This document shows, piece after piece, positions 10,032 to 58,602 of a stretch of 64,000 bases of DNA. This DNA comes from Spiroplasma endosymbiont of Dioctria linearis (lineage in GTDB: Bacteria; Bacillota_I; Bacilli_A; Mycoplasmatales; Mycoplasmataceae), in contig NZ_OZ034984.1 in NCBI RefSeq assembly GCF_964030865.1, positions 248,001 to 312,000 of the forward strand, in the 5' to 3' direction. The position numbers and the translations under genes are program-made. Positions within the stretch are counted from its first letter, which is position 1. Each line of letters starts with the position of its first letter. Under the pieces are notes generated by a model. The model did no database searches. It saw only the letters and a program-made list of their open reading frames with translations, and had not been told where the DNA came from.

Positions 10032-10034
10032 AGT

Positions 10035-11219
10035 ATGAAAAAAATATTCTTATTACTTAGTATAAATTCAATATTATTTCCATCTCTATATACAATATCT
10101 TGTTCTTCATTTTATCCCTATTCAGGGGGTGAGGCACCACTACTAAAAGATTTTACTTTAATAAATTATTCAATAAATAAATATAATAGTCCAGATGAAG
10201 AAAGAAATTTTATATCTTTCTTAAGAACAGGCGGAACAGCTTATAATAATGAGTTTAGTATGGGTGGTGTATCTGAAATTACTTATAAAGATCCAGAAAC
10301 TATGAAGGCTAGAGCAACAAATGAACATTTAGTTCATATTAAAGAAATTGAAAAATTTAATTATGATGTTTATAAATTTGAATTATCTATTTATACTTCT
10401 CAAATAGGTGGAAAATTTTTGTGAGTTGAATCAAGGCAATTTGAAGTGAAAATGATTTATGATCTAGAAAACTCAGAAGCTAAAAAAATTGTGAAAAATT
10501 ATCAATTTTTCATAAAAGATTTCATTGGTATAAATATTCTAACAATAACTTATAAAAAGTTTTTTGATAGTTTTGAGTTATATATAAAGGATCTAGCAAG
10601 TGAGTACTTTTTAAATAAATTTAAAACAGATTTTGATATTCTAAATACTTCAATTGATAATATAAATTTATGAGATAGGTATGGAGAAATAATAAGAAAT
10701 ACATCTAATGAAAAATATATTTACTTAAAAGATGATGATTATTTTTATTTGAAAAGTTTAGATTTTAAAAAAGAGAATGAGATAAATAATAACTCAAGAT
10801 TTTGAGGTAACCTTTATTTTAGTAAGTATCCTGGGGAGCCAGAAATCCCACCAGAACCAAATATTATAGATGTTAGTGATGTTGTTATTAAAGATATTGA
10901 GTCTTATAAACAAATTAATGTTTTATTCTTTATATTTAGACAAAAAACAATGCCACCTGATATAAGTAAAATAATATCTGATTCAATTAAAGAGCAGAAG
11001 CAAATTAATGATGCAAATATAAATTGAAAAGATAATCGAAACTTCTTTTTGTGTTTTGATAAGTATGGTAAGAATTATTTTTCTTCTGAAGAAGATATGC
11101 AAGCTTACTTTGATAGTGGTGAAACAGAGATAGAACTTTATTTAGGGATAAGCGAACATAATAATAACCCGGAATTAGTAGGCGAAATTCGAATTAATAT
11201 TAACTGTGATAAGAAGTAA
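10035..11219 (+). CDS. Lipoprotein, coupled to preceding secreted protein
   Basis: 394 residues. Signal peptide with lipobox YTISC (Cys23) predicts a lipid-anchored external protein. ATG is 3 bases after the upstream TAG and no strong ribosome site lies before it, so translation probably depends on the upstream gene. A Pro-rich linker (GEPEIPPEPN) near residue 275 separates an N-terminal part from a C-terminal beta-rich domain. No known family recognised. Ends at a clear terminator. May form a surface pair with the protein before it. Confidence 0.75.
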
Positions 11220-11247
11220 AGATAAGTATTAGTACTTATCTTTTTTT
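11218..11247 (+). terminator. Rho-independent terminator
   Basis: AAAGATAAGTA and TACTTATCTTT arms around TTAG, then T-run; it overlaps the lipoprotein stop codon. Confidence 0.9.
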
Positions 11248-11565
11248 AATTAATTTTATTTCTCTTAAAATTTACTTTGTATCAAACTAAAAAATATTTA
11301 AAATACGAATTAAAGGCATAAGAGTTATAATAATATGAGTAATAAATAGCAGAGGATACTTTTTAAAAATAAAAATTTATTTTATTAAAATTAATACTAT
11401 TTATTTATAATAAGAAGTAATTAAATACCTTTGAATATTAAAATATAATTTACATGTTCTAAAATTAATACTAGTATTAATAGTCTTATTCAGCTGTTAA
11501 AATTGAATATGTAATTATAAAGAACATATCAACATAATAATTGAATACGAAAGGAATATTATAAA
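11248..11565. promoter_or_regulatory. Intergenic region with 18-bp palindrome
   Basis: No gene seen. ATTAATACTAGTATTAAT at 11464-11481 is a perfect palindrome about 85 bp before the next start and is a candidate operator. AGAACAT (11520) repeats ATGTTCT (11453) in inverted form around it. Confidence 0.5.
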
Positions 11566-12603
11566 ATGAAAAATTTATTTTTTATTAAAACTATCTTTAA
11601 TATTAGAAATAAAAAAACAGAGATTGCTTTTAAGAAAAAAAATTTTTTAAATTTAGATTTATCTAATGATAATGAAATAGTTAATTTTTATTCCTTAGAA
11701 CAAAGTTATAAATTTATAAAAGAAATTGGACCAAGAGGTGGAATAAAGAGATATACAATAAAAGAATCTAATAAAATAAATCCTTTCATTGAAAATTTAG
11801 AGTTTAATAAGTTTAATAATTTGAATGAATATAGTTCATATCAAATAGATAAAAGAAAGCAAGCTAAAGATTTAGATCAAAAACTGGAAAAGGAAAATAA
11901 AAAGGGTGGTTTTATCCTTTTAACATCAATAATAAGTTTTTTACTTATATTTTTATTTGGCATTTCATTAATGATAAATCTTTCTAATGATAAACCTATG
12001 AACAATTTTTTACTTGTTATGCTGACACTTTCTTTTATAGTATGTTTATCATTTCTTATTTGATATTGTCTCTTATTAAATTATTTACGTAATTTATTTC
12101 ATAATTTTTATTGTAATATTGAAATAATAAATAAAGAAACATACTTTAATTTAAAGTATAAAGTACTTGATAAAAATAATAATTCTTTAGATAATTTTTT
12201 TAATATAAAAAGAGGAATTAGTTTTAATAATATAAAAAATGGCTTATATCAAAATAGTAATCAAGGTATTTATGGAATAAAAATTATAAATGATAATCAA
12301 AAAGATACTTATAAAATTCCAATCTATATTGGTCAAGCAAATAATATTTTTAGTAGGTGAAAACAACATATTAATAGTATAGAAAAAGTTTTCTATCAGA
12401 ATAGACAAGATTTAGAACTAAAATATGAAAAAATAGTTGAATATGTAAAACACTATGACTTAAAATTAGAAAATATTTACTTCTTTATTTTAGAAGAAAA
12501 CTTATCACAGATAAGTTGAACAAGAGAGGAATTAAAGCAGTTAGAAACTAATTGAATAAAGGATACAAACTCTGGTTCAAGAGGCTTTAATGCTATTAGA
12601 TAG
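11566..12603 (+). CDS. Membrane-anchored GIY-YIG nuclease-like protein
   Basis: 345 residues. Residues 1-110 are a Lys/Asn-rich cytoplasmic-type domain; two hydrophobic helices follow at about 113-136 and 146-172; the C-terminal third is a GIY-YIG domain. All key positions are visible: GIY 234-236, YIG 254-256, Arg264 and His268 in FSRWKQH, the metal-binding Glu327 in LETNWI, and Asn342. GIY-YIG enzymes cut DNA at one strand per active site. Joining one to a two-helix membrane anchor is unusual; a role at the cell surface, for example against entering DNA or in nucleotide scavenging, is only inference. GAAAGGA lies before ATG. Confidence 0.75.
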
Positions 12604-14099: not shown

Positions 14100-16313
14100 A
14101 TGAATTTTAAATTTTATAAAAATTATGGTAATAAAGAGTTTTACGAAAAAATCATTACAGTTGAAGAAAATATTAACTCTAAAAAATATCCATTTCCAGT
14201 AGAAATTAGAAAGCTTTTAGAATTATTTATTGACTATGAATTTAGTAATGTAGAAAATATAAAAACTGTTGGTTCTAAAATAAAATATATAGTTGACAAT
14301 AAGCAAGCAAGTATTTCAATTACAAATAAAATATCAAAACTAAATGAGATTGTAAAGCCTTTTGCTCATTCAGGTTCTGATTTTAGTGATGTCAAATTTG
14401 ATCAAAAAAAGGATATGCTTAATAAAATGCATGAGATAATTACAGATTATAAAGAGGTTTATGATGAAGAATTTAAGGAAAGCTTTTATACAGATGAAAA
14501 TAAGATGTATTTTGAAAAAAAATATTCTAAAAAATATTTTCAACAACTTTTAGATGAAAAAGAATTAAAGGATTCTGAATGTTTTGAATTATTTTCTTCA
14601 AAATACTTAATGAAATTGGACGAATTAGAATATGAACAAAGAGTGGTTGGCGGTAAAAACGATGGAGGTATTAATATATTTTTTATTGATGATGAAAATT
14701 ATTCAATAAATATAGCCCAATGTAGATATGTAAGTTCTATTACAAAAGAAGATATAGAGTCTAGTATTGATAAAATAATTAATACAATTAATTGTTTTAA
14801 TGAAAATAGATACAATGACAAAAAAGATGAAATTAAAAGTATTGGATCAAATTGATTGAATTATTTAGAAGAGAACAACTCAATTAGTGTATCATTTATA
14901 ACATCTGCTAAAATTGAATTTGAAATTTCAACTATACTTAGCAAATACAAAAAGCAAATACAAAAAAAATTGGGCAATGAAATAAAAGTAAATTTTAGTA
15001 TAATTTGTGAAAAGGAAATAGAAGAAATATTAAAAAATGATGCATTAAAGGCTGGAGTTAAGGAATGCAAATTAGAATTAGTAGATAAAGATTCATATAT
15101 TGAAATAAAAACAGAGAACTATTCCGATGTCTTGCTGGCAGTTATCACTGGTGAGTCTTTGAGAAAAGTATATGAATCACAGTCAAGAGAAGGTCAAATA
15201 TTTGAAAAAAATGTAAGAGGATATATTAAAAATGGAAAAATAGATAGTGGTATTAAAAATACACTTAAAGATAATCCAGAAAAATTTCTTATTTTAAATA
15301 ATGGTTTAACTATAATTGCAAAGAATATTAATAGAGATGGTAGACATTTAAAATTTGATGAATTATTTATCGTTAATGGAGGACAAACAACTTCCCTTAT
15401 AGGAGATTCTTCAATTAACTCATCAATAAAAGAAGTTAAAGTTTTTGTAAAAATAATTGATAATAGTAATGAAAATATAATTGAAGAAATCTCTGAAGCC
15501 TCAAATAATCAAAAACCAATTAAACCTATTGACTTAATTGCAAATAATAGAAATGTTAAAAAATTTCATGACTTAATCAATTCAAAAAAATCAAAATATA
15601 GACTTATATACAAAAGAGCTGATAGACTAAATCAAGAAGCTAAAAGAATGAATAAAAAAATTGTAAAAACTGAAGACTTAATGAAATTATATTTTTCATT
15701 TATTGAGCAAAAGCCTGGTACAGCAAGAAGTGGATTTAAAAATCAAATAACTAAAGATAACTCTGATGTTATTTTTAGAAAATTCAACTCTACTAAGGGT
15801 AATGGATATGATTTTTTTCTAGATTTAATGTATTTAGAGGAAATATATGAACATAATTTTAAAAAATGAAAAACTTCAAATGATAAAGATGAATTAAATA
15901 AAGGAAAAGACTTAAATGAATTTGAGTTCTTAAAAAATGGTAAAAATGCCACTGTAGCTTTAATTGGAGCTATGGTATATTATATTACTTGTTTTAATAA
16001 GAATGTAAAACCAAACATTGAAAGTTATCAAAATCAAAGATCAAAAATTTTATTATCTTCATTTATAAAAAAATCTGAATTTGAAAATAAATCAGATAAG
16101 GATGATAAATTTATTACACTAATAAATTTAATTGCCCAAGAAAGTGCTAGTGTAATTAAAAACTCAGGTATGATCACAACTAATTTTCTAAAAACAGATG
16201 CAAATTATTCAAAACTATTCGATGAAATAATACTAAATTTTGGATCAAGAAATGTAACATTAGTAGAACAAAATTGTAAAGAATTATTAACAGGAATGAA
16301 ATTTAAAAAATAA
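14100..16313 (+). CDS. AIPR-family abortive infection protein
   Basis: 737 residues. The AIPR core is clear: FEKNVRGYI (371-376), IKNTLKDNPEKFLILNNGLTI with the NNG motif at 400-402, and FIVNGGQTTSLI (424-431). AIPR proteins are linked to phage resistance (Lactococcus Abi type). An upstream domain near residues 184-208 (GGKNDGGINIF then INIAQCR) resembles Mrr-like PD-(D/E)XK nucleases with D-G-G-I and Q-x-R in place of Q-x-K. AAGGGG precedes ATG. It is a single gene following DUF2130 by 36 bases, perhaps co-transcribed. The frame is intact through several TGA Trp codons. Confidence 0.85.
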
Positions 16314-18154: not shown

Positions 18155-19579
18155 CTATATATTTTTAAACTCTAAAATAGAAATTTGTAGATAAGAAGCG
18201 ATTATGTCCCAAAATACAAGATTTATGTAATAAATAGATCTTGTATTTTTTCTTTTTCTATCAAAAAAATATCAGTTAGTTGCTTTCCAAGGAGATTCAA
18301 TTTTGGGCACTTTAGTAGTTTCAAATTCTTCATTAGATAGTGTTTTAATACTTCCATGTAAGCGTTCGTCTTCAACTTGAATAAGATTGTAAATGTCATT
18401 TCCAATTAGTGCATAATACTTTTTATTTATCGTTTCCATAACCATTACTTTTAACTTTGGCTTAAAGTAAATTGGAGTAAAGCCCTTACAAATAAATCAC
18501 TTAGTTTTTTTAAAACTGATACTATGACCATTATCAATAATTCTTTCACTTCGATAAGAGAATACAATATCTTCATCTTGATCAAATTTTCTAGTTACTG
18601 ATTCTAATTGGTCTAAAGGTATTGAAAAATCTTGGTTGTATTCCTGAATAAGATGGGGTAAATAATTATTTAACTGCTCAATATTTTTTAAATCTAAGAG
18701 TCTAATTATTTGAGGTCATCTTCTTTGCAGTGTTCCAAAAGTTCTTTCGACTAATGCCTTTTCTTGAGGGATTGACGTTGTTTTTGTATTTACTCCTAAA
18801 GAGTGAAAAATAAACTGCAATTGTGTATTTGAGACACTATCACCAAAATGGTCACGATTATTTTTACTACTAAAAACATTTCGATTATCACTAACATTTA
18901 ATTTTGGTAAACCATAATGTTTGAAGGCTTTTTTATAGATATTATAATAACTTTCAGTAGTTTCTTGCTCACTGAAATAGCCTGCTAAAATCCTTTTACT
19001 AGCTTTATCAATTACAATATGCAAATGACATTTTAAGTTCTTAATTCATTGATGATTTGAAGCATCAGTTTCGTAGATTTCTCCAAACTTTACAATTTTC
19101 TTTTGCGTAGGATGGGGTTTGCTTGTTATAATTGAATTTGAAAGATACTTGCGTGTTAAATTTTCTTGGTTGGTGGCCTTTAAATTTTTACGAATATCTT
19201 TTTTTGTTTTTCTGTTAAGAGTATCAATTAAAACATTTTCTTCTATTAATATGTGCCTAATTGCAGAGTAACTTATTTTCTTTTTTCAAGTTAGTTCTCA
19301 ATAATGCTTAATACTAAAGTCATAATATTTTGTTTGAAACAATTCAATTATTTCATCTTTAAATAACTGTGGTATTTTATTTATAGGTATTTTATTTGTA
19401 TTTTTATGAATAAAAGCTTTTGCTCCAATTTCTTGATATTCTTTAAGTTTTCTTCTTGTGTGTCTAACACTATAACCTAATTTATAGGCTGTATTTTTAA
19501 TAGACTCTTTTCTTAAAGATAATTGTTTAATTAATCTTAGTTGTTCTTGTTTCATGGTATTTAATAGTAGTCCTTTCAT
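18155..19579 (-). CDS. ISNCY/IS1202-like transposase, intact
   Basis: 474 residues. N-terminal helix-turn-helix (SIKNTAYKLGYSVRHTRRKL), then an RNase H-like DDE core: ETDASNHQW, HIVIDKASKRILAGYF-SEQETTESYY, KLNVSDNR, and SIPQEKALVERTFGTLQRR carrying the final Glu. This order is typical of the IS1202 group of ISNCY. GGAGG stands 4 bases before ATG 19579. The stop that ends the protein in copy A is changed to a sense codon here (TAC at the equivalent place), so translation runs through the inverted repeat and stops at 18155 outside the element, adding about 25 residues. Confidence 0.85.
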
Positions 19580-19650: not shown

Positions 19651-19744
19651 ACTCATAAATTATTTTTTAAGTTAAAGTAGTAAATATAAAACTGACTAAA
19701 TATTTGTGTTAAAATATTTTTTAGATATCTATGGAGGAATAATT

Positions 19745-20761
19745 ATGGAGTACATAGGTTCTAAAAAAAGACTGTGAAAGTTTATTGAAAAATTAATTTA
19801 TCCTTATATTAAAGATATTAATAGTGTTTGTGACTTATTTTCTGGAACTGGAGTTGTAGCATATAATTTTAAAATAAAATTGGAAAAAAAAATTATAGCA
19901 AATGATATTCAATTTTATAGTTATGTACAACTTAAGGCTATATTAAATAATGGTAAAAATTTAAAATATTTAAATTATGGAGGATTAGAAAAATTTATTA
20001 ATAAGTTAAACTCATTAAAGTTTAAAGAAGGTTATTTTTATAAAAATTATTGCCCATCAGATTTAAATGAATTTAATAGAATGTTTTTTACTATTGATAA
20101 TGCTAAAAAAATAGATGCAATTAGAATTTATATAGAAAAAATTTATAAGAATAATAAAATTAATGAAACCGAATATTTTTATGCATTATTTTTATTATTA
20201 AACTCAGTAGATAAATGTTCAAATACTGCTGTTGTTTTTGAGGCTTATCTTAAAAAATTTAAAAATAGCGCTATTAAACCTATTGAAATTAAAACTTATG
20301 AAAATATTAAATTTAATAGTATTACATATAAAGTTTATAATCAAGATGCACTAAAATTAATAAAAAAAATAAAAGGAGATTTACTTTACTTAGATCCACC
20401 TTATAATTCAAGGCAATACTCGCGAAATTATCATATTTTGGAAACTCTTGTAAAATATGATAATCCTAAAATAAAGGGTAAAGCTGGAGTAAGAATTGAT
20501 TCCTTTATATCAGGTTTATCTCAGAAAAGAACAGCACTTTTGAATATGGAAGAAATTGTTAAAGAGGCAAAATTTAAATATATTTTAATAAGTTATAGTA
20601 ATGAAGGAATAATTGATTTTAATTTATTTATAGAAATGTTAGAAAAGTATGGATCACTTTCAATTACAGAAATTGATTATTCAAGGTTTAAATCAAATAT
20701 AATAAATACAAAAGCAAAGAGAGTTACAGAGTATCTAATTTTATTAAAAAAGGAGAATTAA
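19745..20761 (+). CDS. D12-class DNA adenine methyltransferase
   Basis: 338 residues. Transfers a methyl group from AdoMet to adenine N6 in DNA. Motif I is DLFSGTG (Phe32-Gly36), preceded by the family start MEYIGSKKRL; motif IV is DPPYNSRQYSRNYH (Asp217-Tyr220). Start ATG has GGAGG 9 bases upstream. The next gene starts 1 base after the stop and looks like a nuclease, so the two form a probable type II restriction-modification pair. Recognition sequence cannot be told from sequence alone. AT-rich and UGA-using like its neighbours. Confidence 0.87.
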
Positions 20762-24816: not shown

Positions 24817-25945
24817 TGAGTAAGGATGAAAAAAATAAAATTGTAATAGAAAGTATTTTTAACAATGTTGGTGGAGTTGAAAAAGATTAAAGATATTTAT
24901 CATTGTGCTACAAGAAGGAGACTTATTTTGTTTTAATTTAAAAATAGCAGATTTAAAGGAAATAAAAAAGTTAGAAAAAAATAAGGCAGTACTTTAACTG
25001 CATGGTGAATTACATTTAGTTATTGTTTTAAGAGGTTTCTAAAATTACATAACTTCCCAAAAAAAATTAACTGTATTTAAAACCAATAATATTGAATTTA
25101 AAATTGAAATAAAAGAGAATTTAACTAACTTTTCTTTAGGGAGAAAATTTAGCAAAACCATTTATGTTATTTTTGAGTCTTTGATTCCATTTTTACTAGG
25201 TGTTGGACTAATTATGAGTTTTCAACAATTACTATTAAGAACATGATTAGACAATGAACCAAATTTAGAGAATATTATTCTAGGTTAAGATTACAATGTA
25301 TTTGATGTTATATTAGAAGTTATTGATAACTCTGGTTTAAAATGATGAGAGTTATTTTAATTTGATCAAGATTAAGATACTTAAATGGTAAAACATTAAT
25401 TCAATTGCCTTGGGGTTAATAAAGATTACACAAATTATTTCTCAAGAGGGAATTAAACTTTTTGAAATTGTACAGTGAGATATTTCTATAAAACCATTTT
25501 ATTCAAAAATATTAGTTTTTATTATTATAAGAATTATGAAAGTTATTTTCAAAAGCTAATTGAGATGTATTTTAATTCTGTAGTAAATTTTATACTTAAT
25601 CCATTTTTAATATTATTGCTAGGTGAGTTATTAGCTTTTTTATTATGGGACCAATAATGGGGATTTTAGAAAATTTACTATTAAGTTTTTCTAATTGATT
25701 TATGAATTGACCAATTTATTTAGAGGCATTAATAGTTGGTTTAACTGGACAAGCTTTGGTTGCACTTGGAGTTCATAATATATTATTTTTTGTAGCAAGT
25801 GCAGATATTAAAAAAGAGAATTCTTTTTTTCTTTTTTTATCAGCAACATTTGCTACTAGATTAAAAATCTGAAAATACAATGGCTAAGTCTGCTTGTTTT
25901 GCTGCAATGTATGAAACTTTCCTTTATTCATTAAAAGACGAATAA
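24817..25945 (+). pseudogene. Decayed PTS EIIBC sugar permease
   Basis: Begins with a EIIB-like MSKDEKNKIVIESIFNNVGG segment, breaks at TAA, and continues in changing frames with EIIC-like pieces: GRKFSKTIYVIFESLIPFLLG, VNFILNPFLILLLGELLAF, GPIMGILENLLLSF, then ALVALGVHNILFFVASADI. Many stops and frameshifts. Together with aldolase and DeoR it suggests a lost sugar uptake operon. Confidence 0.75.
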
Positions 25946-26042
25946 AAAAATGAGTTAAAAGTAAACTTCTTTGAAAAATTGGAGTGTTCTATTAGTAAAT
26001 ATATTCATTTCTATAATTATAAAATAGTATGTGTAATTTAAA
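25941..26042 (+). mobile_element. Fragment of IS3 OrfB end
   Basis: About 100 bp closely match the end of the transposase at 50955-51056 (KELKVN, FEKLE, SISKYIHFYNY), cut off on both sides. It lies directly after the decayed PTS permease. Confidence 0.75.
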
Positions 26043-26252
26043 TTAAAAAGAAATGAAAAAAAAAAAAAAAATTATTTGATCAAATTTAACTTATAAGTTT
26101 TTTTGGTATTAATTTAATTGTCACTTAAGTGTTAAAAAATAAAAATTTATAAAACAATTTTTATTAAAATAAATATTCTTTATAAATCTTGCTTTTTTTT
26201 AATTTGTTTCTAAAATCACACTATGATTATAAAAATAATCAGAGGAGAAATT
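26043..26252. repeat. Intergenic region with A16 tract
   Basis: Sixteen A bases at 26056-26071, 182 bp before the MOLPALP lipoprotein. Otherwise AT-rich with no gene; a TATGAT-like box near 26222. Confidence 0.8.
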
Positions 26253-29877: not shown

Positions 29878-30801
29878 ATGGAAGAAATTATAAAATTTGA
29901 TAATTATACTAAAAAATATAAAAAAAAGATAATTGGCCCTTTAAATTGTTCAATTAAAAAGGCAAGAATCACAGCTTTACTTGGGTCTAGTGGAAGTGGA
30001 AAAACTGTTATTTTAAATTCTTTATTAGGAATAATTAAAGATTTTAAAGGTAAGATTGAAATCGAGTCTAGTTCAAGAAAATCAGAAAAATATTATTTAG
30101 TGAATAAAAAAATTGGTTATTATACTCAAATGGATTTTTCTTTATATGTAGTTAGTTCATATAAATTTCTATTGGATATTTGTATTATGATGGGTATTGA
30201 AAAAAAAGAGTCAATTAAAAAAATCGAATATTGAATGAAATATTTTGATATTTGAGAAGCAAAGGATAAATCAATTAGAAGTTTTTCATGAGGAATGAAA
30301 AATCGTATGAATCTGATATTATGCTTTATCAAAGATCCAGAAATTATTATTCTTGATGAACCTGGAGCAAATCTTGATTCATATTGAAGAAATAAAATTA
30401 AGACTCTTCTAATAGATGCAAAAAAGGCTGGAAAAACTGTTGTGATAACAGTTCACAACATTGATGAAATAGCAGACATTATTGATGATTTTATAATTAT
30501 TGATGATGGAAAAAATATTTTTAATGGATCTACTAAAGAACTAAATGTTTATGCAAAATATAAGTTATATGTAAATGAGAAGTTTGATGAAAAAGATTTC
30601 AGATTATTTTTAAACGACTTAAATATAAAAACTTTTAAATATGATATCGATGAAAACTCTTTAGTTGTAGCAATTGAAAACTTTAAGCAAATCAATTACT
30701 TATTTTTATATTTAATAAAAAATAATCTGCCATTAAAAAACCTTGTAAAATTACCTATAAATATGGAATCTATTTATAAGGCATTGGAAGCAAAGGAATA
30801 A
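29878..30801 (+). CDS. ABC transporter ATPase with Trp in signature motif (cassette 1)
   Basis: 307 residues. Walker A GSSGSGKT (36-43), Q-loop in YYTQMDFS, signature FSWGM (136-140) instead of LSGGx, Walker B EIIILDEP (Asp160, Glu161), H-loop TVHN (His193). Trp138 is encoded by TGA. The C-terminal 90 residues are an extra domain (NLPLKNLVKLPINMESIYKAL) common in ABC-2-type drug or lipid exporters. It powers the permease upstream. AGGGGGG before the ATG overlaps the end of the permease gene. Confidence 0.88.
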
Positions 30802-30877: not shown

Positions 30878-31110
30878 TTAATAAAATATCCTTCTAAATC
30901 AAATAGTTTTTAAAACAAGTCAAAGTCTATCCGTATATTATTTTTAAAATATTTTCTATTTTTTTTATTAAAAAGTAGAAAATTTTTCAAATATTTGATA
31001 AAATATTTTTGGATAAAGGAGTAAGAATTAAATTAACTACGTAAATATTAAAAATAGCTTTTGCTAAAAAGGGAGTTAGGGTGGGTTATGAAAGAAGGGT
31101 AAAGAAATTT

Positions 31111-32460
31111 ATGAAACTATTATTAGGTTTACTTGGGACAATAGTAATTCCAAGTGCTTCAATATCAAACATAGTAGTTAAAGAACAAATACAAATTAAT
31201 CAAGAAACTTATAGATGAACGGAAATGACAGCGTCAAAAGTTAAATTTAATAATGAAAGGTTAATGCCTGACATTAACTACTCAAATAAAACAGCTTTTA
31301 TTGAGAATTATGATATATGAGATAGTTGAGCATTAATGAATAATGATGGAAGTGTTGCCACTGTAAATGGATATCAAATATGATTTGCTTTATCAAAACC
31401 AGTAGATGGCAGTGGAGAAACAAAAATAATGTATTTTTATTCTGAAACAGGAAGTAATTGAATCCCAGGGGGGTATGTTCTATCTGAAAATTTAGTTAAA
31501 GGTTCAGAGGAATGATCTGGTTCTGCTTTATATGATGAAGATACTAAAGAAGTTAATTTATTTTATACTGTATCTAATCTTACTTATGGTAACAACTGAA
31601 ATCAAAGAATTGCATTAGCAAAAATAAACTTAAATTTTGATGATGTAATTCCAAAATTTGAGAAACCTACTTTTCATAAAATAATTGCGGAAGCTGATGG
31701 GAACTTATATCAAACTCATGAAGCAGCTGAAGCAGTGGGATATGCTAAACAAAAATGAGCTTTTAGAGATCCATTTTACTTTAGAGATCCAAAAACAGGT
31801 CAAGAATATTTATTATTTGAAGGAAATACAGGTTTATTAACTGGTAAAGAAGGCGAACGACTACCTGAATATACTGGTGGTTTTGAAGATTATCCTGACG
31901 ATTATGATTTTGAGAGATCAAATATGGCAAATTCAGCTATTGGAATTGCAAAATTAGATTTAGATAGTGGAGATGTTGAATTATTAAACCCACTATGAGC
32001 TTCAAATTTGGTCTCTGATGAGACTGAAAGACCAAGTTTAATTTATAATAAAAAATTTGATAGATATTATATGTTTACAACAACTCATGGATACTATAAT
32101 ATGAATTTGGCTCCTGGTTTAAATGAAAATGATAGTTTACATGGCTTCACAACAAAAGGAAGTTTATTTGGTGAAATGACTCCTATAAATGAAGATGGTT
32201 TAATTTTATATTCTAAACCTGAAAAAACTGAAATTGAAAATGAGATAGTTTGAAATGAGAATTATGCATACGCATGGGGAGTAATCTCAGATAATTTGGA
32301 CTCTGAATATTTATTAACCTTAGCATTTAGCAATTTCTCATCTGATGGTAAAAATGAATTGAAAAAAATAAGAGGAGCAGCTCCAAGTTTATTATTAAAA
32401 ATCGTGGATGATAAAATATTAATAGAAGAGGAACTTCTACCAGCTCAAGTTATGAGATAA
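31111..32460 (+). CDS. Secreted GH68 levansucrase/fructosyltransferase-like enzyme
   Basis: 449 residues. GH68 enzymes split sucrose and build levan or release fructose. The three catalytic positions are all present: nucleophile Asp71 in IWDSW, transition-state Asp220 in FRDP, and acid/base Glu306 in DETER. Also typical: EEWSGSA, YLLFEGNTG, ANSAIGIA, and APSLLLKI near the end. Length is normal for the family. The N-terminus (MKLLLGLLGTIVIPSASIS) is a signal-like helix without lipobox Cys, so the enzyme is probably secreted. ATG 31111 is used; GTG at 31081 in frame with GGGAG before it is a possible alternative. It stands alone, with no sucrose PTS beside it. Confidence 0.88.
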
Positions 32461-32523: not shown

Positions 32524-33260
32524 TAACCCAGTTTTACCAGTAGTTTCACTACTGGTTTTTTTAATCAAGGAAAAAATTAAAAAATAAAATACAGTAAAAA
32601 ATTGAAAGTAGAGTTTGCAAAAAAGTTTAATTAAGGTCATACACCTAAAAAATTAGTAGAAGAATATAATTTAACTTCTGGAATACAATTATTTTATTTA
32701 TGAAACATAAAATACTCAAATTTGATATATATAATACTAATTTTTGTAAGGAGTTTACTATAATGGCAAATAAATTGAAAAATATTTTAAAGATAAAAGT
32801 ATAAAAAGTTATAAAAAGAAATAGCTAAATTATAGAGAAAATTAATGGAGTCAAATGAATTAGTAATACTTTTAAATGCAAGGTATCAAATTTTAAAAAA
32901 ATTCATCCCTTCTTGTAAAGCGGAGATGATCATCAACACAATGAAAGTGAACAAGAAATACTTAATTCAGATAACAAAAATAAAAATTTATAAGCATTAT
33001 TATATTCAGTTTTATTAATAATAATAGAAATTTTTTAACTCATTCTATGTTTGAGGCGTGTTTTAAACATAATGCTCCAAGCGAATTACTTAATGGTTTT
33101 GTAAAAAAATTTATAAACAATATACTAATGAATTTACTTCAATAGAAGATTTTTATATTCATCATAAGTAAATTGTTTTGGTTCACTACCAGAATAAAAA
33201 CGATTAGTTCTTTATTTCAATCAATATTTTGAAATATAGATATTTATAGTATGAAAACAT
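32524..33260 (+). mobile_element. Decayed IS3-like element (same type as at 48391-49824)
   Basis: Starts with the end-hairpin ACCAGTAGT-ACTACTGG plus T-run, then pieces of transposase (KKLVEEYNLTSG, MANKLKN, NELVILLNARYQIL), a deletion, and a late part matching HNAPSELLNGFVKKFINN. Many stops. The hairpin may act as terminator for the GH68 gene. Confidence 0.75.
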
Positions 33261-34144: not shown

Positions 34145-34167
34145 TTTATGAAAGGAGATTTCATAAA
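34145..34167 (+). promoter_or_regulatory. Hairpin holding the ribosome site of the PTS gene in its loop
   Basis: TTTATGAAA (34145-34153) and TTTCATAAA (34159-34167) form a 9-bp stem; the loop GGAGA is the Shine-Dalgarno sequence and the stem ends at the A of the start codon. It may control translation or be an operator. Confidence 0.6.
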
Positions 34168-36758
34168 TGGAAAAAAATATTAAAATTTATTCTCCCATAG
34201 ATGGAAAAGTAAAACCATTAAAAAATTTAAATGATGGTGTATTTTCTGAAAATATGTTGGGAGATGGGGTTTATATTGAACCAACTTCAAGTGACTTTTA
34301 TTCACCTTTTGAAGAAGGAACGGTTGCTCAAATATTTCATACTAAGCATGCTTTTCATTTTAAAAGTAAGCAAGGACCAGTAATTCTTATGCATATTGGT
34401 CTTGATACAATTCATTTACAGGGAAAACCATTTGATGTTAAAGTCAATGAGGGAGATTCCATTAATTTAAAAACAAAAATTGTGGCTGTAGATTTTAAGC
34501 TTTTAGAGGAAAAAAATATTATCAAATCTACACCCATAGTAATTGATTTACAGGAATTTAAAGATTGAAGTTTTAATAGCAATATTAAAGATGAAAAATT
34601 AATAAAAAGAGGAGATTTAATTGGAGAGTTAGTATTTAAAGAAAAAACTGTTGAGAACTCAACAGTAGAACAAGTTCAAAAACTATTAAATACTAAAAAT
34701 AAATATGAACAAGCAGCAGAAGAAATTTATAAAGCCGTAGGAAAAAAGGAAAATTATAAACAAGTTTATAATTGTATGACTAGATTACGTTTTGAAGTGC
34801 TTGATACTAAAAAAGTAGATGTTGAAGCAATTAAAAATATTAATTTAGTTAAAGGTATTATTTGAGCTGGAAATCAGATTCAAATTGTAATTGGAGGAGA
34901 AGTTTATAAAGTCAAAGAGGCTGTAGAAAATGTTGCTCAAGGTATTACCACTAATAAAAATAAAATTAAAACTGCAAACAAACAAAGTCTAGCTCGAAGA
35001 TTTATGATTGCTGTTGGAGCAATTATTATGCCCTCACTTCCAATAATGATGGCATCAGGATTATTAATGGGTTTAAAAACTTTACTTGTAATGGGAAATG
35101 TAATTACTGATATGAAATTTGGTACTGGAGCTCCAATTGATATGAATGTGGATTTATTTTCATTATTTATTAATATTGCTTCAGAGACTGGATTAAAATT
35201 AATGGGAATTTTTATTGGTTATAATGCTATGAAATGATTAGGGGGACCTACAATAATGCAGCTGTTGCTATCATTATTAATTGCAGGAGCTCCATTAGGA
35301 TTGGGAATTCAACCTGACTTAACATTATTTAGTATTAATGGATTTGCTGTAAAAGCAGCACTATATACTTCATCAATTATTCCCCATGTGGCTATGGCAT
35401 TTATTATTTTTTATTTAGATAAATGAATTAAAGTTTGAATGCCTACATCAATTGATGTTTTATTTAGACCATTATTAATAGTTATCATTGCTTATGGATC
35501 AATGTTTTTCTTATTAGGTCCAATATTATTTTTAATAGAGCAATTTATGGCATTAATTGTTGGATATTTATCACAAATTCCTTATGGAGTTGGAGTTATG
35601 ATATTCGTAGCAGCTTGGCAACCGTTGGTTCTTACAGGTATGCATGTACCAGTAGTTATGACTGTGTTAATGCCAATGGCAGCGGGGCATTTCTCAACTT
35701 TAATGGCCATTAATATTGCTGTTTTTGCTCAAGTTGGAGCTGCAATTGGTGTTGCTATTAGAACTAAAAATGGTCAATTAAGGTCAACTGTTATTGCAGC
35801 AATTCCTGGGGGAATTGTTGGTGTAACTGAACCTATACTTTATGGAATTAACTTACCGAAAATGAGACCATTTATTGCAGGAATTATTGCAGCTGGACTA
35901 TTTGGATTATTGTCTGGTTTATTGGGAATTGAAGCAAGAACCTCTGGTGGTTTAGGAATTTTTGGTTTTACAGGTACTTTAATGGAACCAAGATATGCTG
36001 AAACCGTAATTAATGGAGTAAAATTAATGCCTTCTGCAAATAATATTTTTACAGGAGTGCCTAACTCTGCTGTATTAAATTGTGTTCTATGATTTATTCT
36101 TAACATTGGAGTTGTTCCTGTAGCTGCAGGAGTTGCGCTCTTAATGTATGTTGAAAGAAAAGATGAAAAAAAATCTGTTAAATCAGCAAATAAAGCACTT
36201 TTAAAATATTATGGTTTAGCTAAAAAGATTAAAGTTAATGTTGCAAAAACACAATTAGAAGCGGAAATAAAAAAAATTGATTCTGTAATTTCTTTAGAAG
36301 ATAGTTTGAGGTCAAAAGAAATTGAAAAAATATTTATTAAAATTAATTCATTAGAGTCAAAAATAGATATTTGATATTCTAAATTAGAAAAGAAAAAACA
36401 AGCTATTATTACAAAATTAGCAAGGGTTTCAATTAGAGATAATAATGAAGCAGAGTTAAAAAGATTATTAGATAATTATAATCAATTAGAAAATAATGTA
36501 AAACTTAAAGAGTTAAGTGATGAATTAATAAAAGTGAAAACAGAAAGCAATAAAGCAATTAGTGAATTTAATACATGAAAAAGAAAATCTTATGAATCTA
36601 TCAATGCTATTGTTTTAGAAATAAGTCAAAAAGCTGATAATAAAATATTGGCAGAAGTTGGGGACTTATATTACAATGCCATTAATGCCTTAGAAATTGG
36701 TTATATGTTAATTGATTCAAAAGATTTTTATATTAGTAAAAAAAGAATTAGAGAATAA
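34167..36758 (+). CDS. PTS EIIABC, beta-glucoside type
   Basis: 863 residues, domains in the order IIA-IIB-IIC. IIA (1-150) has active His76 in LMHIGLD and His61; IIB (about 175-265) has Cys203 in YNCMTRLRF; IIC (about 275-660) has ten or so helices and the loop GVTEPILYGIN. It imports and phosphorylates a sugar, most likely a beta-glucoside because a GH1 6-phospho-beta-glucosidase follows 14 bases later. About 200 further residues at the end are charged coiled coil, longer than in most EIIs. Regulated presumably by the RpiR protein upstream. Confidence 0.88.
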
Positions 36759-36772
36759 AAAGGAGAAAATGT

Positions 36773-38188
<1,416 letters not shown>

Positions 38189-41749: not shown

Positions 41750-43582
41750 ATGAAAAAATTATTAAGCTTATTGGGAGCTGTTAGTTTAATTGCAACTTCA
41801 AGTGCAAGCGTTGTTGCATGTGGCGATAGTGAGACAGTAAAAGTAGAAAATTACGAATTAATTAAGGCTCTTGAAAAGGATGCTAATGAAATTTTTGTAA
41901 AGCATTTACAAAATAATATTTATGACAAAATGATTGGCTTAACTATTAATGAAAAGGAGAATAAGTTTTTAAATAAAAGCACTATTAAAATATTTAAGGG
42001 CAGATCTGCAAGTGAAATTGGAGAAAAAACCTTAGCTCTTTTAGTTGATGATATTAATAGAATATTAAATATTAGTCAATTAGAATCTGAATTAAATAAA
42101 TTGAAACTTGTTAATGAGTATAGTATTCTTTTAAATGATGTAAATACTTTATACAAGGGGATTGTTTTTGATTGAAGTACTTTAGATATTAATACAAATG
42201 AAAGTGAATCATTATATTTAGGCAATGTTTTATTAGACTTTAAAATACAAGTTCAATACAAAGGTGAAAAAGATATTGAATTATTACAAATTAATGATTC
42301 TTTTAAATATACTCTAACAAATGATGCAACACTAAAAGACTCATCTGATAAATTTTATAAAAATATCACAAAGGATTATTTTTCATCACAAGATTCAGAT
42401 GCTAAAAAATATTCAAATTTAGTTTGAAATGATATTAAGGGTCAAAAAAATAAAATAGATGGCTATGGAAATATTGATAAAGAAATTGACAATTACTGAA
42501 ATAGAACTGCAAGAACAAATGGATTTAAAGACTCTATTGCTAAATTTATTAAAACTAATTATTTTAGTAAATTGCCAACATTGCCTTTATCTTTTGAAAC
42601 AGATAATTTTTATAAGGGTTCAGAATTAAGTAAAACATCTTTATTTCATTCTATTAATACACCAAAAGCATTTAATAATAGCGAATCAATTAAGTTTGAT
42701 TATAAAACTGAAGAAGGTCAATTAATGTTGGAAAGTATTTTTAGAAAAAATCCTGATATTAATCCAACAAGTTTTATATTGAAAAATAATTATTTTACTG
42801 AAAATAATCTTAATGTTTGAAAAAGTGATTATGAAATATCAAAAGAAAATTTCATTAAAAATCTAAATTTAAATTCAAATGATGAGTTTAAACAAACTGA
42901 GCAATATAAAAACTCATTTTCAATGAATTATGTTAACTTAACTGGACTTTCAATTAAATTTCCTGATCAAGAATATGTTCATAATTTACCTGACTTTAAA
43001 ATAGCTACTAATTATATAATTGATTCAAATCAAAGTTCAGAAGCAATTTTAGATGATATGACTGAATTTTCTATAAATTCAATTAAAGCATTTCATGAAG
43101 TTTTTGGTGTTGATTATAGTTATAACTATTTGGAAAATAATAATTCCAAAGAAGATATTTTAATGGCAATTAAGAAATCTGATTTTACAAATGCAATTAA
43201 GTTTAATCAAGCTACTTCTGGCGGTTTAGAGTTAATGAGTCCAGCTCTCTCATTAACTGCAACTGGTTTATCTTCATATAGAGATAAACTATTACAATTG
43301 TCAAATTTACCATCAAATTCAACATATTTATTTGATTCTAGAGAACCGAGCACTAGTAGGGTTTCTGTAGCAGGTTATGGAGGATCTAAATATTATAGAA
43401 ATTATAGCAGTCAAAATGGAATATATTCAACAATACATGACTTGAATTTTAAGCCTAGTATTAAAGATTATAATGAAAAAATATTTTATTGAAAGTTAGG
43501 TTACATAAATATTTACTTTGATTTAGATCAAATAATTGATGGAGGAAGATTTGGACTAAAATACTTTATTGTATTTTCATAA
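41750..43582 (+). CDS. MOLPALP-family lipoprotein, array copy 1
   Basis: 610 residues with TGA as Trp. Signal with lipobox Cys24. From about residue 50 on, nearly identical to the next two copies, while its signal region, promoter and residues 25-45 differ (CGDSETVKVEN against CGGPINPTKPP). Conserved blocks as in the family: LYLGNVLLDFKIQVQYKGEK, LPLSFETDNFYKGSEL, YVNLTGLSIKFPDQEYVHNL, LGYINIYFDLDQI. No ABC genes follow; it is a lone lipoprotein, perhaps sharing the transporter of another cassette or acting as an alternative surface antigen. IS relics follow directly. Confidence 0.87.
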
Positions 43583-44008: not shown

Positions 44009-45853
44009 ATGAAAAAATTATTAAGCCTATTAGGTGCAGTTAGTTTAATTGCAACTTCAAGTGCAAGTGTTGTTGCTTGTGGAGGTCCAATTAATCCAAC
44101 AAAACCTCCAACAGTAGATTATGACAAATTAGTTAAGGATCTTGAAAAAGATGTTAATGAAATTTTTGCAAAGCATTTACAAAATAATGTTTATGAAAAA
44201 ATGATTGGTTTAACTATTAACGAAAAGGAGAATAAGTTTTTAAATAAAACTACTATTAAAACATTTAAGGGTAGATCTGCAAGTGAAATTGGAGAAAAAA
44301 ACTTAGCTTTTTTAGTTGATGATATTAATAGAATATTAGATATTAGTCAATTAGAATCTGAATTAAATAAATTAAAACTTGTTAATGAGTATAGTATTCT
44401 TTTAAATGATGTAAATACTTTATACAAGGGGATTGTTTTTGATTGAAGTACTTTAGATATTAATACAAATGAAAGTGAATCATTATATTTAGGAAATGTT
44501 TTATTAGACTTTAAAATACAAGTTCAATACAAAGGTGAAAAAGATATTGAATTATTACAAATTAATGATTCTTTTAAATATACTCTAACAAATGATGCAA
44601 CACTAAAAGACTCATCTGATAAATTTTATAAAAATATCACAAAGGATTATTTTTCATCACAAGATTCAGATGCTAAAAAATATTCAAATTTACTTTGAAA
44701 TGATATTAAGGGTCAAAAAAATAAAATAGATGGCTATGGAAATATTGATAAAGAAATTGACAATTACTGAAATAGAACTGCAAGAACAAATGGATTTAAA
44801 GACTCTATTGCTAAATTTATTAAAACTAATTATTTTAGTAAATTGCCAACATTGCCTTTATCTTTTGAAACAAATAATTTTTATAAGGGTTCAGAATTAA
44901 GTAAAACATCTTTATTTCATTCTATTAATACACCAAAAGCATTTAATAATAGCGAATCAATTAAGTTTGATTATAAAACTGAAGAAGGTCAATTAATGTT
45001 GGAAAGTATTTTTAGAAAAAATCCTGATATTAATCCAACAAGTTTTATATTGAAAAATAATTATTTTACTGAAAATAATCTTAATGTTTGAAAAAGTGAT
45101 TATGAAATATCAAAAGAAAATTTCATTAAAAATCTAAATTTAAATTCAAATGATGAGTTTAAACAAACTGAGCAATATAAAAACTCATTTTCAATGAATT
45201 ATGTTAACTTAACTGGACTTTCAATTAAATTTCCTGATCAAGAATATGTTCATAATTTACCTGACTTTAAAATAGCTACTAATTATATAATTGATTCAAA
45301 TCAAAGTTCAGAAGCAATTTTAGATGATATGACTGAATTTTCTATAAATTCAATTAAAGCATTTCATGAAGTTTTTGGTGTTGATTATAGTTATAACTAT
45401 TTGGAAAATAATAATTCCAAAGAAGATATTTTAATGGCAATTAAGAAATCTGATTTTACAAATGCAATTAAGTTTAATCAAGCTACTTCTGGCGGTTTAG
45501 AGTTAATGAGTCCAGCTCTCTCATTAACTGCAACTGGTTTATCTTCATATAGAGATAAACTATTACAATTGTCAAATTTACCATCAAATTCAACATATTT
45601 ATTTGATTCTAGAGAACCGAGCACTAGTAGGGATTCTGTAGCAGGTTATGGAGGATCTAAATATTATAGAAATTATAGCAGTCAAAATGGAATATATTCA
45701 ACAATACATGACTTGAATTTTAAGCCTAGTATTAAAGATTATAATGAAAAAATATTTTATTGAAAGTTAGGTTACATAAATATTTACTTTGATTTAGATC
45801 AAATAATTGATGGAGGAAGATTTGGACTAAAATACTTTATTGTATTTTCATAA
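44009..45853 (+). CDS. MOLPALP-family lipoprotein, array copy 2
   Basis: 614 residues. AAGGGG before ATG. Signal with lipobox Cys24, then CGGPINPTKPPTVDY, a short Pro-rich linker. The body is nearly identical to copy 1 (few substitutions, for example Val to Asp in the variable SREPSTSR part) and to copy 3. A product of recent tandem duplication. Same IS-derived hairpin follows as terminator. Function as for the family: external lipoprotein of unknown ligand. Confidence 0.87.
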
Positions 45854-46279: not shown

Positions 46280-48118
46280 ATGAAAAAATTATTAAGCCTA
46301 TTAGGCGCAGTTAGTTTAATTGCAACTTCAAGTGCAAGTGTTGTTGCTTGTGGAGGTCCAATTAATCCAACAAAACCTCCAACAGTAGATTATGACAAAT
46401 TAGTTAAGGATCTTGAAAAAGATGTTAATGAAATTTTTGCAAAGCATTTACAAAATAATGTTTATGAAAAAATGATTGGTTTAACTATTAACGAAAAGGA
46501 GAATAAGTTTTTAAATAAAACTACTATTAAAACATTTAAGGGTAGATCTGCAAGTGAAATTGGAGAAAAAAACTTAGCTTTTTTAGTTGATGATATTAAT
46601 AGAATATTAGATATTAGTCAATTAGAATCTGAATTAAATAAATTAAAACTTGTTAATGAGTATAGTATTCTTTTAAATGATGTAAATACTTTATACAAGG
46701 GGATTGTTTTTGATTGAAGTACTTTAGATATTAATACAAATGAAAGTGAATCATTATATTTAGGAAATGTTTTATTAGACTTTAAAATACAAGTTCAATA
46801 CAAAGGTGAAAAAGATATTGAATTATTACAAATTAATGATTCTTTTAAATATACTCTAACAAATGATGCAACACTAAAAGACTCATCTGATAAATTTTAT
46901 AAAAATATCACAAAGGATTATTTTTCATCACAAGATTCAGATGCTAAAAAATATTCAAATTTACTTTGAAATGATATTAAGGGTCAAAAAAATAAAATAG
47001 ATGGCTATGGAAATATTGATAAAGAAATTGACAATTACTGAAATAGAACTGCAAGAACAAATGGATTTAAAGACTCTATTGCTAAATTTATTAAAACTAA
47101 TTATTTTAGTAAATTGCCAACATTGCCTTTATCTTTTGAAACAGATAATTTTTATAAGGGTTCAGAATTAAGTAAAACATCTTTATTTCATTCTATTAAT
47201 ACACCAAAAGCATTTAATAATAGCGAATCAATTAAGTTTGATTATAAAACTGAAGAAGGTCAATTAATGTTGGAAAGTATTTTTAGAAAAAATCCTGATA
47301 TGAATCCAACAAGCTTTATATTGAAAAATAATTATTTTACTGAAAATAATCTTAATGTTTGAAAAAGTGATTATGAAATATCAAAAGAAAATTTCATTAA
47401 AAATCTAAATTTAAATTCAAATAATGAGTTTAAACAAACTGAGCAATATAAAAACTCATTTTCAATGAATTATGTTAACTTAACTGGACTTTCAATTAAA
47501 TTTCCTGATCAAGAATATGTTCATAATTTACCTGACTTTAAAATAGCTACTAATTATATAATTGATTCAAATCAAAGTTCAGAAGCAATTTTAGATGATA
47601 TGACTGAATTTTCTATAAATTCAATTAAATCATTTCATGAAGTTTTTGGTGTTGATTATAGTTATAACTATTTGGAAAATAATAATTCCAAAGATGATAT
47701 TTTAATGGCAATTAAGAAATCTGATTTTACAAATGCAATTAAGTTTAATCAAGCTACTTCTGGCGGTTTAGAGTTAATGAGTCCAGCTCTCTCATTAACT
47801 GCAAATGGTTTATCTTCATATAGAAATAAACTATTAGAAAACTCAAATTTACCATCAAATTCAACATATTTATTTGATTCTAGAAGTACTGATGTTGCTA
47901 ATGCTTATGTATCAGGATATGTAGTAAGTAAATACTATAGAAATTATAGTAGTCAAAATGGAATATATTCAACAATATATTACTTGAATCAAAGTAACAA
48001 TAATTATAATGAAAAAATATTTTATTGAAATTTAGGTTACTTAAATATTCATTTTGATTTGGATCAAATAATTGATGGAACAAGAAACGGGCTGAAATAC
48101 TTTATTGTATTTTCATAG
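46280..48118 (+). CDS. MOLPALP-family lipoprotein, array copy 3
   Basis: 612 residues. The first two thirds equal copy 2 almost base for base; the C-terminal part from about residue 510 differs (ENSNLPSNSTYLFDSRSTDVANAYVSGY in place of the version of copies 1 and 2), then the conserved LGYLNIHFDLDQI end. This mosaic pattern implies recombination or a diversified C-terminal region. Ends before a perfect palindromic terminator. Confidence 0.87.
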
Positions 48119-53057: not shown

Positions 53058-54890
53058 ATGAAAAAATTATTAAGCTTATTAGGAGCAGTTAGTTTAATTG
53101 CAACTTCAAGTGCAAGTGTTGTTGCTTGTGGTGGTCCAACTGATCCAACAAAACCTCCAACAATAGATTATGACAAATTAGTTAAGGATCTTGAAAAAGA
53201 TGTTAATGAAATTTTTGCAAAGCATTTACAAAATAATGTTTATGAAAAAATGATTGGTTTAACTATTAATGAAAAAGATTATAAGTTTTTAAATAAAAGC
53301 ACTATTAAAATATTTAAGGGTAAAACTTCAAGTGAAATTGGAGAAAAAAACTTAGCTCTTTTAGTTGAAGATATTAATAAAATATTAGATATTAGTCAAT
53401 TAGAATCTGAATTAAATAAATTAAAACTTGTTAATGAGTACAGTATTCTTTTAAATGAAGTAAATACTTTATACAAGGGAATTGTTTTTGATTGAAGTAG
53501 TTTAGAAATTGATACAAATGAAAGTGAATCATTATATTTAGGAAACGTTTTATTAGACTTTAAAATACAAGTTCAATACAAAGGTGAAAAAGATATTGAA
53601 TTATTACAAATTAATGATTCTTTTAAATATACTCTAACAAATGATGCAACATTAAAAGATTCATCTGATAAATTTTATAAAAATATCACAAAGGATTATT
53701 TTTCATCAAAAGATTCAGATGCCATAAAATACTCAAATTTACTTTGAAATGATATTAAGGGTGAAAAAAGTAAAATAGATGGCTATGGAAATATTGATAA
53801 AGAAATGAGCAATTACTGAAATAATACTGCAAAAACAAATGGATTTAAAGAATCTATTGCTAAATTTATTAAAACAAATTATTTTAGTAAATTACCAACA
53901 TTGCCTTTATCTTTTGGAACAGATAATTTTTATAAAAGTTCAGAATTAAGTAGAACATCTTTATTTCATTCTATTAATACACCAAAAGCATTTAATAGTA
54001 GTGAATCAATTAAGTTTGATTATAAAACTGAAGAAGGTCAATTTATGCTAGAAAGTATTTTTAGAAAAAATCCTGACATTTATCCAACAAGTTATGTATT
54101 AAAAAATAATTATTTTACTGAAGATAATCTTAATGTTTGAAAAAAAGATTATGAAATTTCAAAAGAAAATTTTATTAAAAATCTAAATTTAAATTCAAAT
54201 GGTGAGTTTAAAAAAACTGAACAATATAAAAACTCATTTTCATTGAATTATGTTAACTTAACTGGACTTTCAATTAAATTTCCTGATCAAGAATATGTTC
54301 ATAATTTACCTGACTTTAAAATAGCTACTAATTATATAATTGATTCAAATCAAAGTTCAGAAGCAATTTTAGATGATATGACTGAATTTTCTATAAATTC
54401 AATTAAATCATTTCATGAAGTTTTTGGTGTTGATTATAGTTATAACTATTTGGAAAATAATAATTCCAAAGAAGATATTTTAATGGCTCTTAAAAGATCT
54501 GATTTTACAAATGCACTTAATTTTTTGACAGCCGGTGTTGGTGGATCAGAAATAATTAATCCAGCTCTGTCATTAAGAAATACTTTAGTTTCTTATCAAA
54601 ATGAGCTTTTAGATTTATCAAATTTGCCATCAAGTTCAACATATTTATTTGATTTTAGAGGTTTATCTGATAGTGGGTCAAATCCTTCAAGCATTGGTAG
54701 AACTAAATATTATAAAAATTACAATAGTCAGAGGGGAATCTTCCTATCAATATATAATCTTAGCGAATCATATCAAAATGAAAAAGTAGTTTATTGAAAT
54801 TTAGGTTACTTAAATATGCACTTTGATTTAGATCAAATAATTGAAGGAGTAAGAACTTTATCGCAAAAGGACTTTATTGTATTTTCATAA
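53058..54890 (+). CDS. MOLPALP-family lipoprotein, array copy 4
   Basis: 610 residues; signal with lipobox Cys24 and the linker CGGPTDPTKPPTIDY. About nine tenths identical to copies 1-3 in its body but with its own C-terminal part (LTAGVGGSEIINPALSLRNT, FRGLSDSGSNPSSIG), before the conserved LGYLNMHFDLDQI end. So the C-terminal segment is the main site of variation in the array. Promoter same as copies 2 and 3. Separated from the tandem array by about 5 kb of IS sequence. Ends at a GTTTGCA/TGCAAAC terminator. Confidence 0.87.
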
Positions 54891-58506: not shown

Positions 58507-58602
58507 TTCGCTTAAAAAATTTAAATTTAAAAAGTTGAAAATTTAAATTTTAAATGAGCTTTTAAAAAACAAAAGTATCCTTAAAAAGGAATGGAGATAG
58601 TT

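What the first reader, a model, noticed from the sequence alone, without database searches (positions are those of the whole stretch)
31111..32460. GH68 levansucrase-like enzyme in a wall-less bacterium
All three catalytic residues of GH68 (Asp71, Asp220, Glu306) and several conserved blocks are present in an exported protein with local codon usage including TGA Trp. A secreted fructosyltransferase would let the organism use sucrose outside the cell or build a levan coat, which fits an insect- or flower-associated life. I do not recall this family as typical of mollicutes; lateral transfer is likely.
Basis: partly seen in the sequence, partly recalled or inferred. Interest (0 to 1): 0.7.

Follow-up and report, generated by a model that had tools for sequence, protein, structure and literature searches.

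The report
Sucrose-splitting GH68 enzyme in Spiroplasma
A wall-less insect-associated bacterium (a Spiroplasma) carries an intact, selection-maintained gene for a probably exported levansucrase-family enzyme that should split sucrose outside the cell; the enzyme family is well known but was found in only 3 of 20 sequenced species of this genus and in no other mollicute relative searched.

Summary
The ORF at 31111-32460 (+, TGA=Trp) is a full-length GH68 protein: Pfam PF02435 E=3e-69, GH68 enzymes fill the top 48 structural matches, and D71, D220, E306 align with SacB D86, D247, E342. It is under purifying selection (dN/dS 0.11-0.19) and uses local codons. In a 20-species Spiroplasma genus (Apis clade) only three species have it, at two different loci; none was found elsewhere in the sampled class or phylum. 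Acquisition from outside the mollicutes is likely, but the donor is unresolved: nearest relatives found are about 33% identical, on a very long stem. Catalysis on sucrose is expected but untested. SacB residues linked to levan elongation (R360, K363, R433, N242, S412) are H, N, L, K, A here, so I favour an extracellular sucrase making glucose, fructose and short fructo-oligosaccharides over a levan-coat maker, with moderate confidence. The genome also has a cytosolic sucrose pathway and fructose PTSs, so products can be used. It is a new member of a known family in an unusual host. Six other species of the genus carry exported GH32 fructanase-like genes instead, perhaps the better lead.

The parts
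31111..32460 (+). GH68 fructosyltransferase/sucrase gene (449 aa, 10 TGA-Trp codons)
   Evidence: Pfam PF02435 E=3.1e-69; PDB phmmer best 7bj4 E=2.5e-46; structural matches ranks 1-48 all GH68
31111..31173 (+). Predicted signal/anchor segment MKLLLGLLGTIVIPSASISNI; in G376 Ser19 is Cys (PSASIC), resembling the genus's lipoprotein signals
   Evidence: Alignment A4, hydropathy, codons; no NCBIfam model hit, so inferred
31321..31323 (+). Codon of catalytic nucleophile Asp71 (WDSW motif)
   Evidence: Invariant in A1; aligns with SacB D86
31768..31770 (+). Codon of transition-state stabiliser Asp220 (FRDP motif)
   Evidence: Invariant in A1; aligns with SacB D247
32026..32028 (+). Codon of acid/base Glu306 (DETERP motif)
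   Evidence: Invariant in A1; aligns with SacB E342
31079..31110 (+). Conserved 5' leader with purine-rich ribosome-binding stretch (GAAAGAAGGG)
   Evidence: DNA similarity between G000 and G376 starts at 31079 and ends at 32457
32536..32562 (+). Terminator-like hairpin after the gene; suggests it is transcribed apart from the downstream RpiR/PTS genes
   Evidence: 9-pair stem plus T run; 2 terminator-like sites found in the region against 0.3 expected
29878..30801 (+). ABC transporter ATPase, left neighbour; conserved in G169 and in GH68-less G244
   Evidence: Pfam ABC_tran; 93% and 89% identity
33327..34061 (+). RpiR-family regulator, right neighbour, conserved in G169, G244 and S. diminutum (G121)
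   Evidence: Pfam HTH_6
34167..36758 (+). PTS EIIABC, nearest to beta-glucoside/sucrose types (scores below their cut-offs); conserved without GH68 in relatives
36773..38188 (+). GH1 6-phospho-beta-glucosidase-like gene following the PTS; not linked to GH68 in relatives

Best explanation
A genuine GH68 enzyme acquired by a Spiroplasma (Apis clade) lineage, fitted with a native-type N-terminal export/anchor segment and kept by selection. It most likely acts on the outer face of the cell or is released. Asp71 attacks the fructosyl carbon of sucrose while Glu306 protonates the leaving glucose and Asp220 stabilises the transition state; the fructosyl-enzyme is then resolved mainly by water or small sugars, giving glucose, fructose and short fructo-oligosaccharides; the monosaccharides feed the cell's sugar PTSs. 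Shown here: family, catalytic residues, fold, conservation, distribution, presence of uptake and breakdown genes. Inferred: export, activity on sucrose, hydrolysis or short products over polymer, and the nutritional role.
For: Pfam and PDB matches; AlphaFold model (mean pLDDT 66, pTM 0.75) whose best matches are all GH68, Z 36.7 to 7bj4 and 34.5 to SacB 1oyg against 22.5 for the first GH32; catalytic and -1 subsite residues conserved; dN/dS 0.11-0.19 over three species and GC3 0.13 like neighbours; SacB residues R360, K363, R433, N242, S412 replaced by H326, N332, L404, K215, A388, and the R360H-type change shortens products in Bacillus enzymes (PMC6531494); PTS-scrB-fructokinase cluster and fructose PTS matches in the same genome.
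Against: Gram-negative and haloarchaeal enzymes naturally carry His at the R360 position, and a haloarchaeal one makes inulin (PMC8066391), so His does not prove short products. The genome can already import and split sucrose inside the cell, so an external sucrase is not needed for sucrose use. No signal-peptide model matched and the PF10502 signal peptidase was not found. No activity data. The model is of modest confidence, with loops near the active site below pLDDT 50.
Confidence: 0.55

Rival explanations
1. A polymerising levansucrase or inulosucrase: the exported enzyme builds a fructan coat or matrix around the wall-less cell or in the insect gut.
For: Closest solved structure by sequence and fold is the Halalkalicoccus inulosucrase 7bj4; His at the R360 position occurs in fructan-forming enzymes (PMC8066391); the cell already has a sucrose PTS pathway, so a synthetic role would explain keeping an external enzyme; the genome has only one GH32, scrB-like with no evident signal, so a polymer would persist.
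Against: The HX(H/F)T inulosucrase marker (PMC8066391) is absent: the site reads HGYYNMN; SacB long-chain residues are missing; no report of fructan in Spiroplasma was found.
Confidence: 0.28
2. A GH68-fold protein retargeted to another fructoside or another acceptor (for example glycosylating surface lipids or proteins), with sucrose not its natural donor.
For: Very long stem branch in the family tree (1.3-1.7 changes per site) and Spiroplasma-specific loop insertions beside the active site, around residues 328-332 and 369-384.
Against: All catalytic residues and most fructosyl-binding residues tested are kept.
Confidence: 0.1
3. Vertical inheritance from an ancient mollicute GH68 with loss almost everywhere, rather than acquisition by the Spiroplasma lineage.
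For: The trees weakly place it beside Bacillota GH68 (93/95 and 88/88), and synonymous divergence between G000 and G376 (0.78) equals that of two neighbouring orthologues (0.72-0.82), so presence may predate their split.
Against: No hit outside this genus in 395 class and 392 phylum genomes sampled would need very many losses.
Confidence: 0.07

Closest known systems
Inulosucrase of Halalkalicoccus jeotgali (GH68; PDB 7bj4/7bjc)
   Same: Best sequence match (E=2.5e-46) and best fold match (Z 36.7, rmsd 3.0, 354 aligned); same catalytic triad; its haloarchaeal relatives also have His at the SacB-R360 position.
   Different: About 32% identity; haloarchaeal proteins carry an Arg-Arg N-terminus and an RHN loop where the window has GSGETK; the HXHT marker is absent here.
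SacB levansucrase of Bacillus subtilis (GH68; PDB 1oyg)
   Same: Triad and -1 subsite residues, five-bladed propeller fold.
   Different: About 27% identity in the fold alignment; R360H, K363N, R433L, N242K, S412A; two of four calcium ligands replaced (D241Q, Q272E).
Levansucrases of Gram-negative bacteria (Brenneria 7ehs, Erwinia 6frw, Zymomonas 9ibs)
   Same: Triad; His at the R360 position in the Gram-negative proteins aligned here.
   Different: About 27-31% identity by structure; the window protein has longer loops and no cysteines.
Exported GH32 fructanase-like proteins of other Spiroplasma species in this genus
   Same: Clan GH-J propeller enzymes with export signals, expected to act on beta-fructosides; found in six species lacking GH68.
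   Different: Different family (Pfam PF00251; best PDB match an endolevanase).

Membership tests
GH68 (Pfam PF02435) | Profile match above the curated cut-off across the domain | tested here: met
   234 bits, cut-off 27, profile positions 13-413 of 424
GH68 (Pfam PF02435) | Asp nucleophile in WD motif, Asp of RDP motif, Glu of DEIER-like motif | tested here: met
   D71, D220, E306 aligned with SacB D86, D247, E342 and invariant
GH68 (Pfam PF02435) | Five-bladed beta-propeller closer to GH68 than to GH32/GH43 | tested here: met
   Foldseek ranks 1-48 all GH68, next GH43 at 5e-10; VIA Z 36.7-25.7 for GH68, 22.5 for first GH32
GH68 (Pfam PF02435) | Catalysis on sucrose | not testable with these tools
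   Needs an enzyme assay
Levansucrase (EC 2.4.1.10), SacB-type long-levan producer | SacB residues linked to elongation (R360, K363, R433, N242) | tested here: not met
   H326, N332, L404, K215; these mark SacB-type elongation only, other levansucrases differ too
Levansucrase (EC 2.4.1.10), SacB-type long-levan producer | Product is beta-2,6 levan | not testable with these tools
   Needs product analysis
Inulosucrase (haloarchaeal/halophilic subfamily) | HX(H/F)T marker proposed in PMC8066391 | tested here: not met
   Window reads H326-G-Y-Y-N-M-N; haloarchaea read HEFT/HKFT
Calcium-binding GH68 (SacB, L. johnsonii) | Ligands D241, Q272, N310, D339 | tested here: inconclusive
   Q214, E247, N274, D303: two of four kept; alignment near 247 is a loop
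Exported protein | Recognisable signal peptide and processing | tested here: inconclusive
   Hydrophobic N-terminus; no NCBIfam signal hit; SPase II present, PF10502 SPase I not found

The most novel reading that the evidence does not exclude
A distinct GH68 lineage confined to a few wall-less Spiroplasma that produces fructans or fructo-oligosaccharides from host dietary sucrose, while other species of the same genus carry arrays of exported GH32 fructanases: a producer/consumer fructan economy among related insect symbionts.
Probability: 0.12. Interest if true: 0.7.

Novelty: new member of a known kind. Interest (0 to 1): 0.42.

Why it matters
As far as the searched literature shows, GH68 has not been described in mollicutes; genome annotation may already name it. 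An external sucrose-splitting enzyme would change how sugar use by these insect symbionts is modelled, because published work on the Apis clade treats sucrose use through scr genes (PMC5726471). The enzyme is also a deep GH68 branch with an unusual acceptor site, useful for asking what decides hydrolysis against polymer formation.

Tried and rejected
Donor search: a single-protein scan of genome contigs found no relative; a profile with haloarchaeal sequences found 16 loci, 15 haloarchaeal and one Steroidobacteraceae MAG, none over about 35% identical. Its patterns were drawn partly from haloarchaea, so this is not evidence of a haloarchaeal donor. Phages: no match; viral contigs: no relative.

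Tree placement: beside Bacillota with 93/95 or 88/88 support, but grouping with haloarchaea (p-AU 0.105) or gammaproteobacteria (0.065) is not rejected and long branches meet. The sampled Bacillota are few and come from plasmids, and halophilic bacilli were not available.

Linkage to the downstream RpiR-PTS-GH1 genes: rejected, because that cluster is conserved without GH68 in G244 and S. diminutum, and a terminator-like hairpin lies between. Assembly contamination: rejected, because the gene lies in a single-contig genome, uses 10 TGA-Trp codons and has orthologues in two further species. Pseudogene: rejected by dN/dS. Recent transfer between G000 and G376: not supported, since dS matches two other orthologues, though the different loci mean the gene moved or was exchanged early.

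Exclusivity of GH68 and exported GH32: 3 of 20 and 6 of 20 species without overlap has about 0.32 chance probability and follows the phylogeny, so it is an observation only. Rfam: no RNA element near the gene.

Full report
Observation. The window lies at 248001-312000 of a single 1.23-Mb contig. Read with TGA as Trp, the ORF 31111-32460 encodes 449 aa with 10 TGA and one TGG Trp codon. It matches Pfam GH68 at 3.1e-69 over nearly the whole profile, and solved GH68 structures by sequence, best 7bj4 at 2.5e-46. This is far beyond chance.

Fold. An AlphaFold2 model from an alignment of the window protein with 15 related proteins is a propeller of modest confidence (mean pLDDT 66, pTM 0.75). Foldseek's first 48 PDB matches are all GH68, and the next is a GH43-type arabinanase at 5e-10. 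VIA-align gives Z 36.7 (rmsd 3.0, 354 aligned) to the Halalkalicoccus inulosucrase and 34.5 (rmsd 3.3, 382 aligned) to SacB; the first non-GH68 entry has Z 22.5.

Organism and distribution. One genome of the same genus, G121, is 945,296 bp, exactly the length published for Spiroplasma diminutum (PMC5091035), so the genus is the Apis-clade Spiroplasma; the species of the window itself was not identified. GH68 occurs in 3 of the 20 genomes of this genus and in none of the other 40 family genomes searched, and nowhere else among 395 class and 392 phylum genomes sampled; the B. subtilis control was positive. On an rpoB tree the carriers need at least two changes: G000 and G169 are sisters with GH68-less G244 next, and G376 lies in another branch beside GH68-less G418.

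Locus. In G000 and G169 the gene sits between an ABC transporter gene and an RpiR regulator; in G244 that same slot holds a lipoprotein gene. In G376 it sits elsewhere, between homologues of window genes 8943-10031 and 11566-12603. DNA similarity between the two loci covers the ORF and 32 bases before it and no more. The gene is therefore a single-gene unit that has changed place. A terminator-like hairpin follows it. The PTS and GH1 genes downstream belong to a cluster that exists without GH68 in relatives, so they are not evidence of its role.

Selection and origin. dN/dS is 0.11 (G000/G169) and 0.18-0.19 (against G376), so the protein is maintained. dS between G000 and G376 (0.78) equals that of two other orthologues (0.72-0.82), so the gene probably was present near their common ancestor and was lost or moved later; saturation makes this approximate. 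GC3 and TGA use match neighbours. The N-terminus resembles Spiroplasma export signals; in G376 a Cys occupies position 19 (PSASIC) where the other two have Ser, so the enzyme may be a lipoprotein there and a secreted or anchored protein here. This is inference: no signal model matched, lipoprotein signal peptidase is present, and the PF10502 signal peptidase I model found nothing. Outside the genus the nearest relatives found are about 33% identical haloarchaeal proteins. The family trees put the Spiroplasma proteins on a stem of 1.3-1.7 changes per site, near Bacillota but without decisive support. Lateral acquisition is the simplest reading of the distribution, and the donor is unknown.

How it works. 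By the established GH68 mechanism, Asp71 forms a fructosyl-enzyme from sucrose, Glu306 is the acid/base and Asp220 stabilises the transition state. What happens next (water, short acceptors or growing fructan) cannot be read from the family. Residues tied to levan elongation or acceptor binding in Bacillus enzymes are replaced: R360 to H326, K363 to N332, R433 to L404, N242 to K215, S412 to A388. In B. megaterium levansucrase the R370H change (SacB R360) cuts products to DP 4 (PMC6531494). But His is natural in haloarchaeal and Gram-negative enzymes, some of which make polymer, and the inulosucrase marker HX(H/F)T (PMC8066391) is missing here. I therefore favour hydrolysis and short oligosaccharides at about two to one over polymer. 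The same genome has an scr cluster with PTS, sucrose-6-phosphate hydrolase and fructokinase-like genes and three fructose PTS matches, so the monosaccharide products are usable. The existing intracellular route also means an outside enzyme is not strictly needed, which is the main point for the rival.

Context in the genus. Six other species (G189, G413, G415, G416, G320, G419) carry several GH32 genes of about 500-570 codons; those read in full (G189, G416, G320) are exported, many with lipoprotein-type signals, and the best PDB match of one is an endolevanase. The GH68 carriers have only scrB-length GH32 genes. The lack of overlap is not significant on 20 species, but it suggests that extracellular fructoside chemistry is a recurrent theme in this genus.

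Verdict. Real, intact and conserved; a new member of a known enzyme family in a host group where the searched literature does not mention it. Product and physiological role need a bench test.

Noticed in passing
L077 1594-11882, L078 1180-6018, L080 1122-6011 (G189, G416, G320); also G413, G415, G419: Tandem arrays of exported 500-570 aa GH32 proteins, many with Spiroplasma lipoprotein signals, best PDB match an endolevanase; absent from the GH68 carriers.
   Followed up: partly
window 25645-26100: A PTS gene intact in G244 (720 aa, L045 15808-17970) is broken in the window, and the 1-phosphofructokinase-like gene next to it in G244 has no counterpart ORF between 24750 and 26223.
   Followed up: partly
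window 41750-43582, 44009-45853, 46280-48118, 53058-54890, 58591-60441: Several ORFs of 610-616 aa that look like a repeated family; 41750-43582 is 40-45% identical to the lipoprotein genes near the GH68 slot in relatives.
   Followed up: no
window 14100-16313: AIPR/AbiU-like protein (Pfam AIPR 8e-36; PADLOC AbiU 1e-36), next to a DUF2130 gene: possible phage-defence gene in a variable island.
   Followed up: no
window 8943-12603 and L030 11601-14821: Variable slot between an AlaX-like gene and DUF2130: in G376 it holds GH68, in the window an unrelated 394-aa protein between the same flanking homologues.
   Followed up: partly
window 18155-19579 (-) and 19706-20761 (+): ISNCY-type transposase beside a type II D12 adenine methyltransferase gene.
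   Followed up: no
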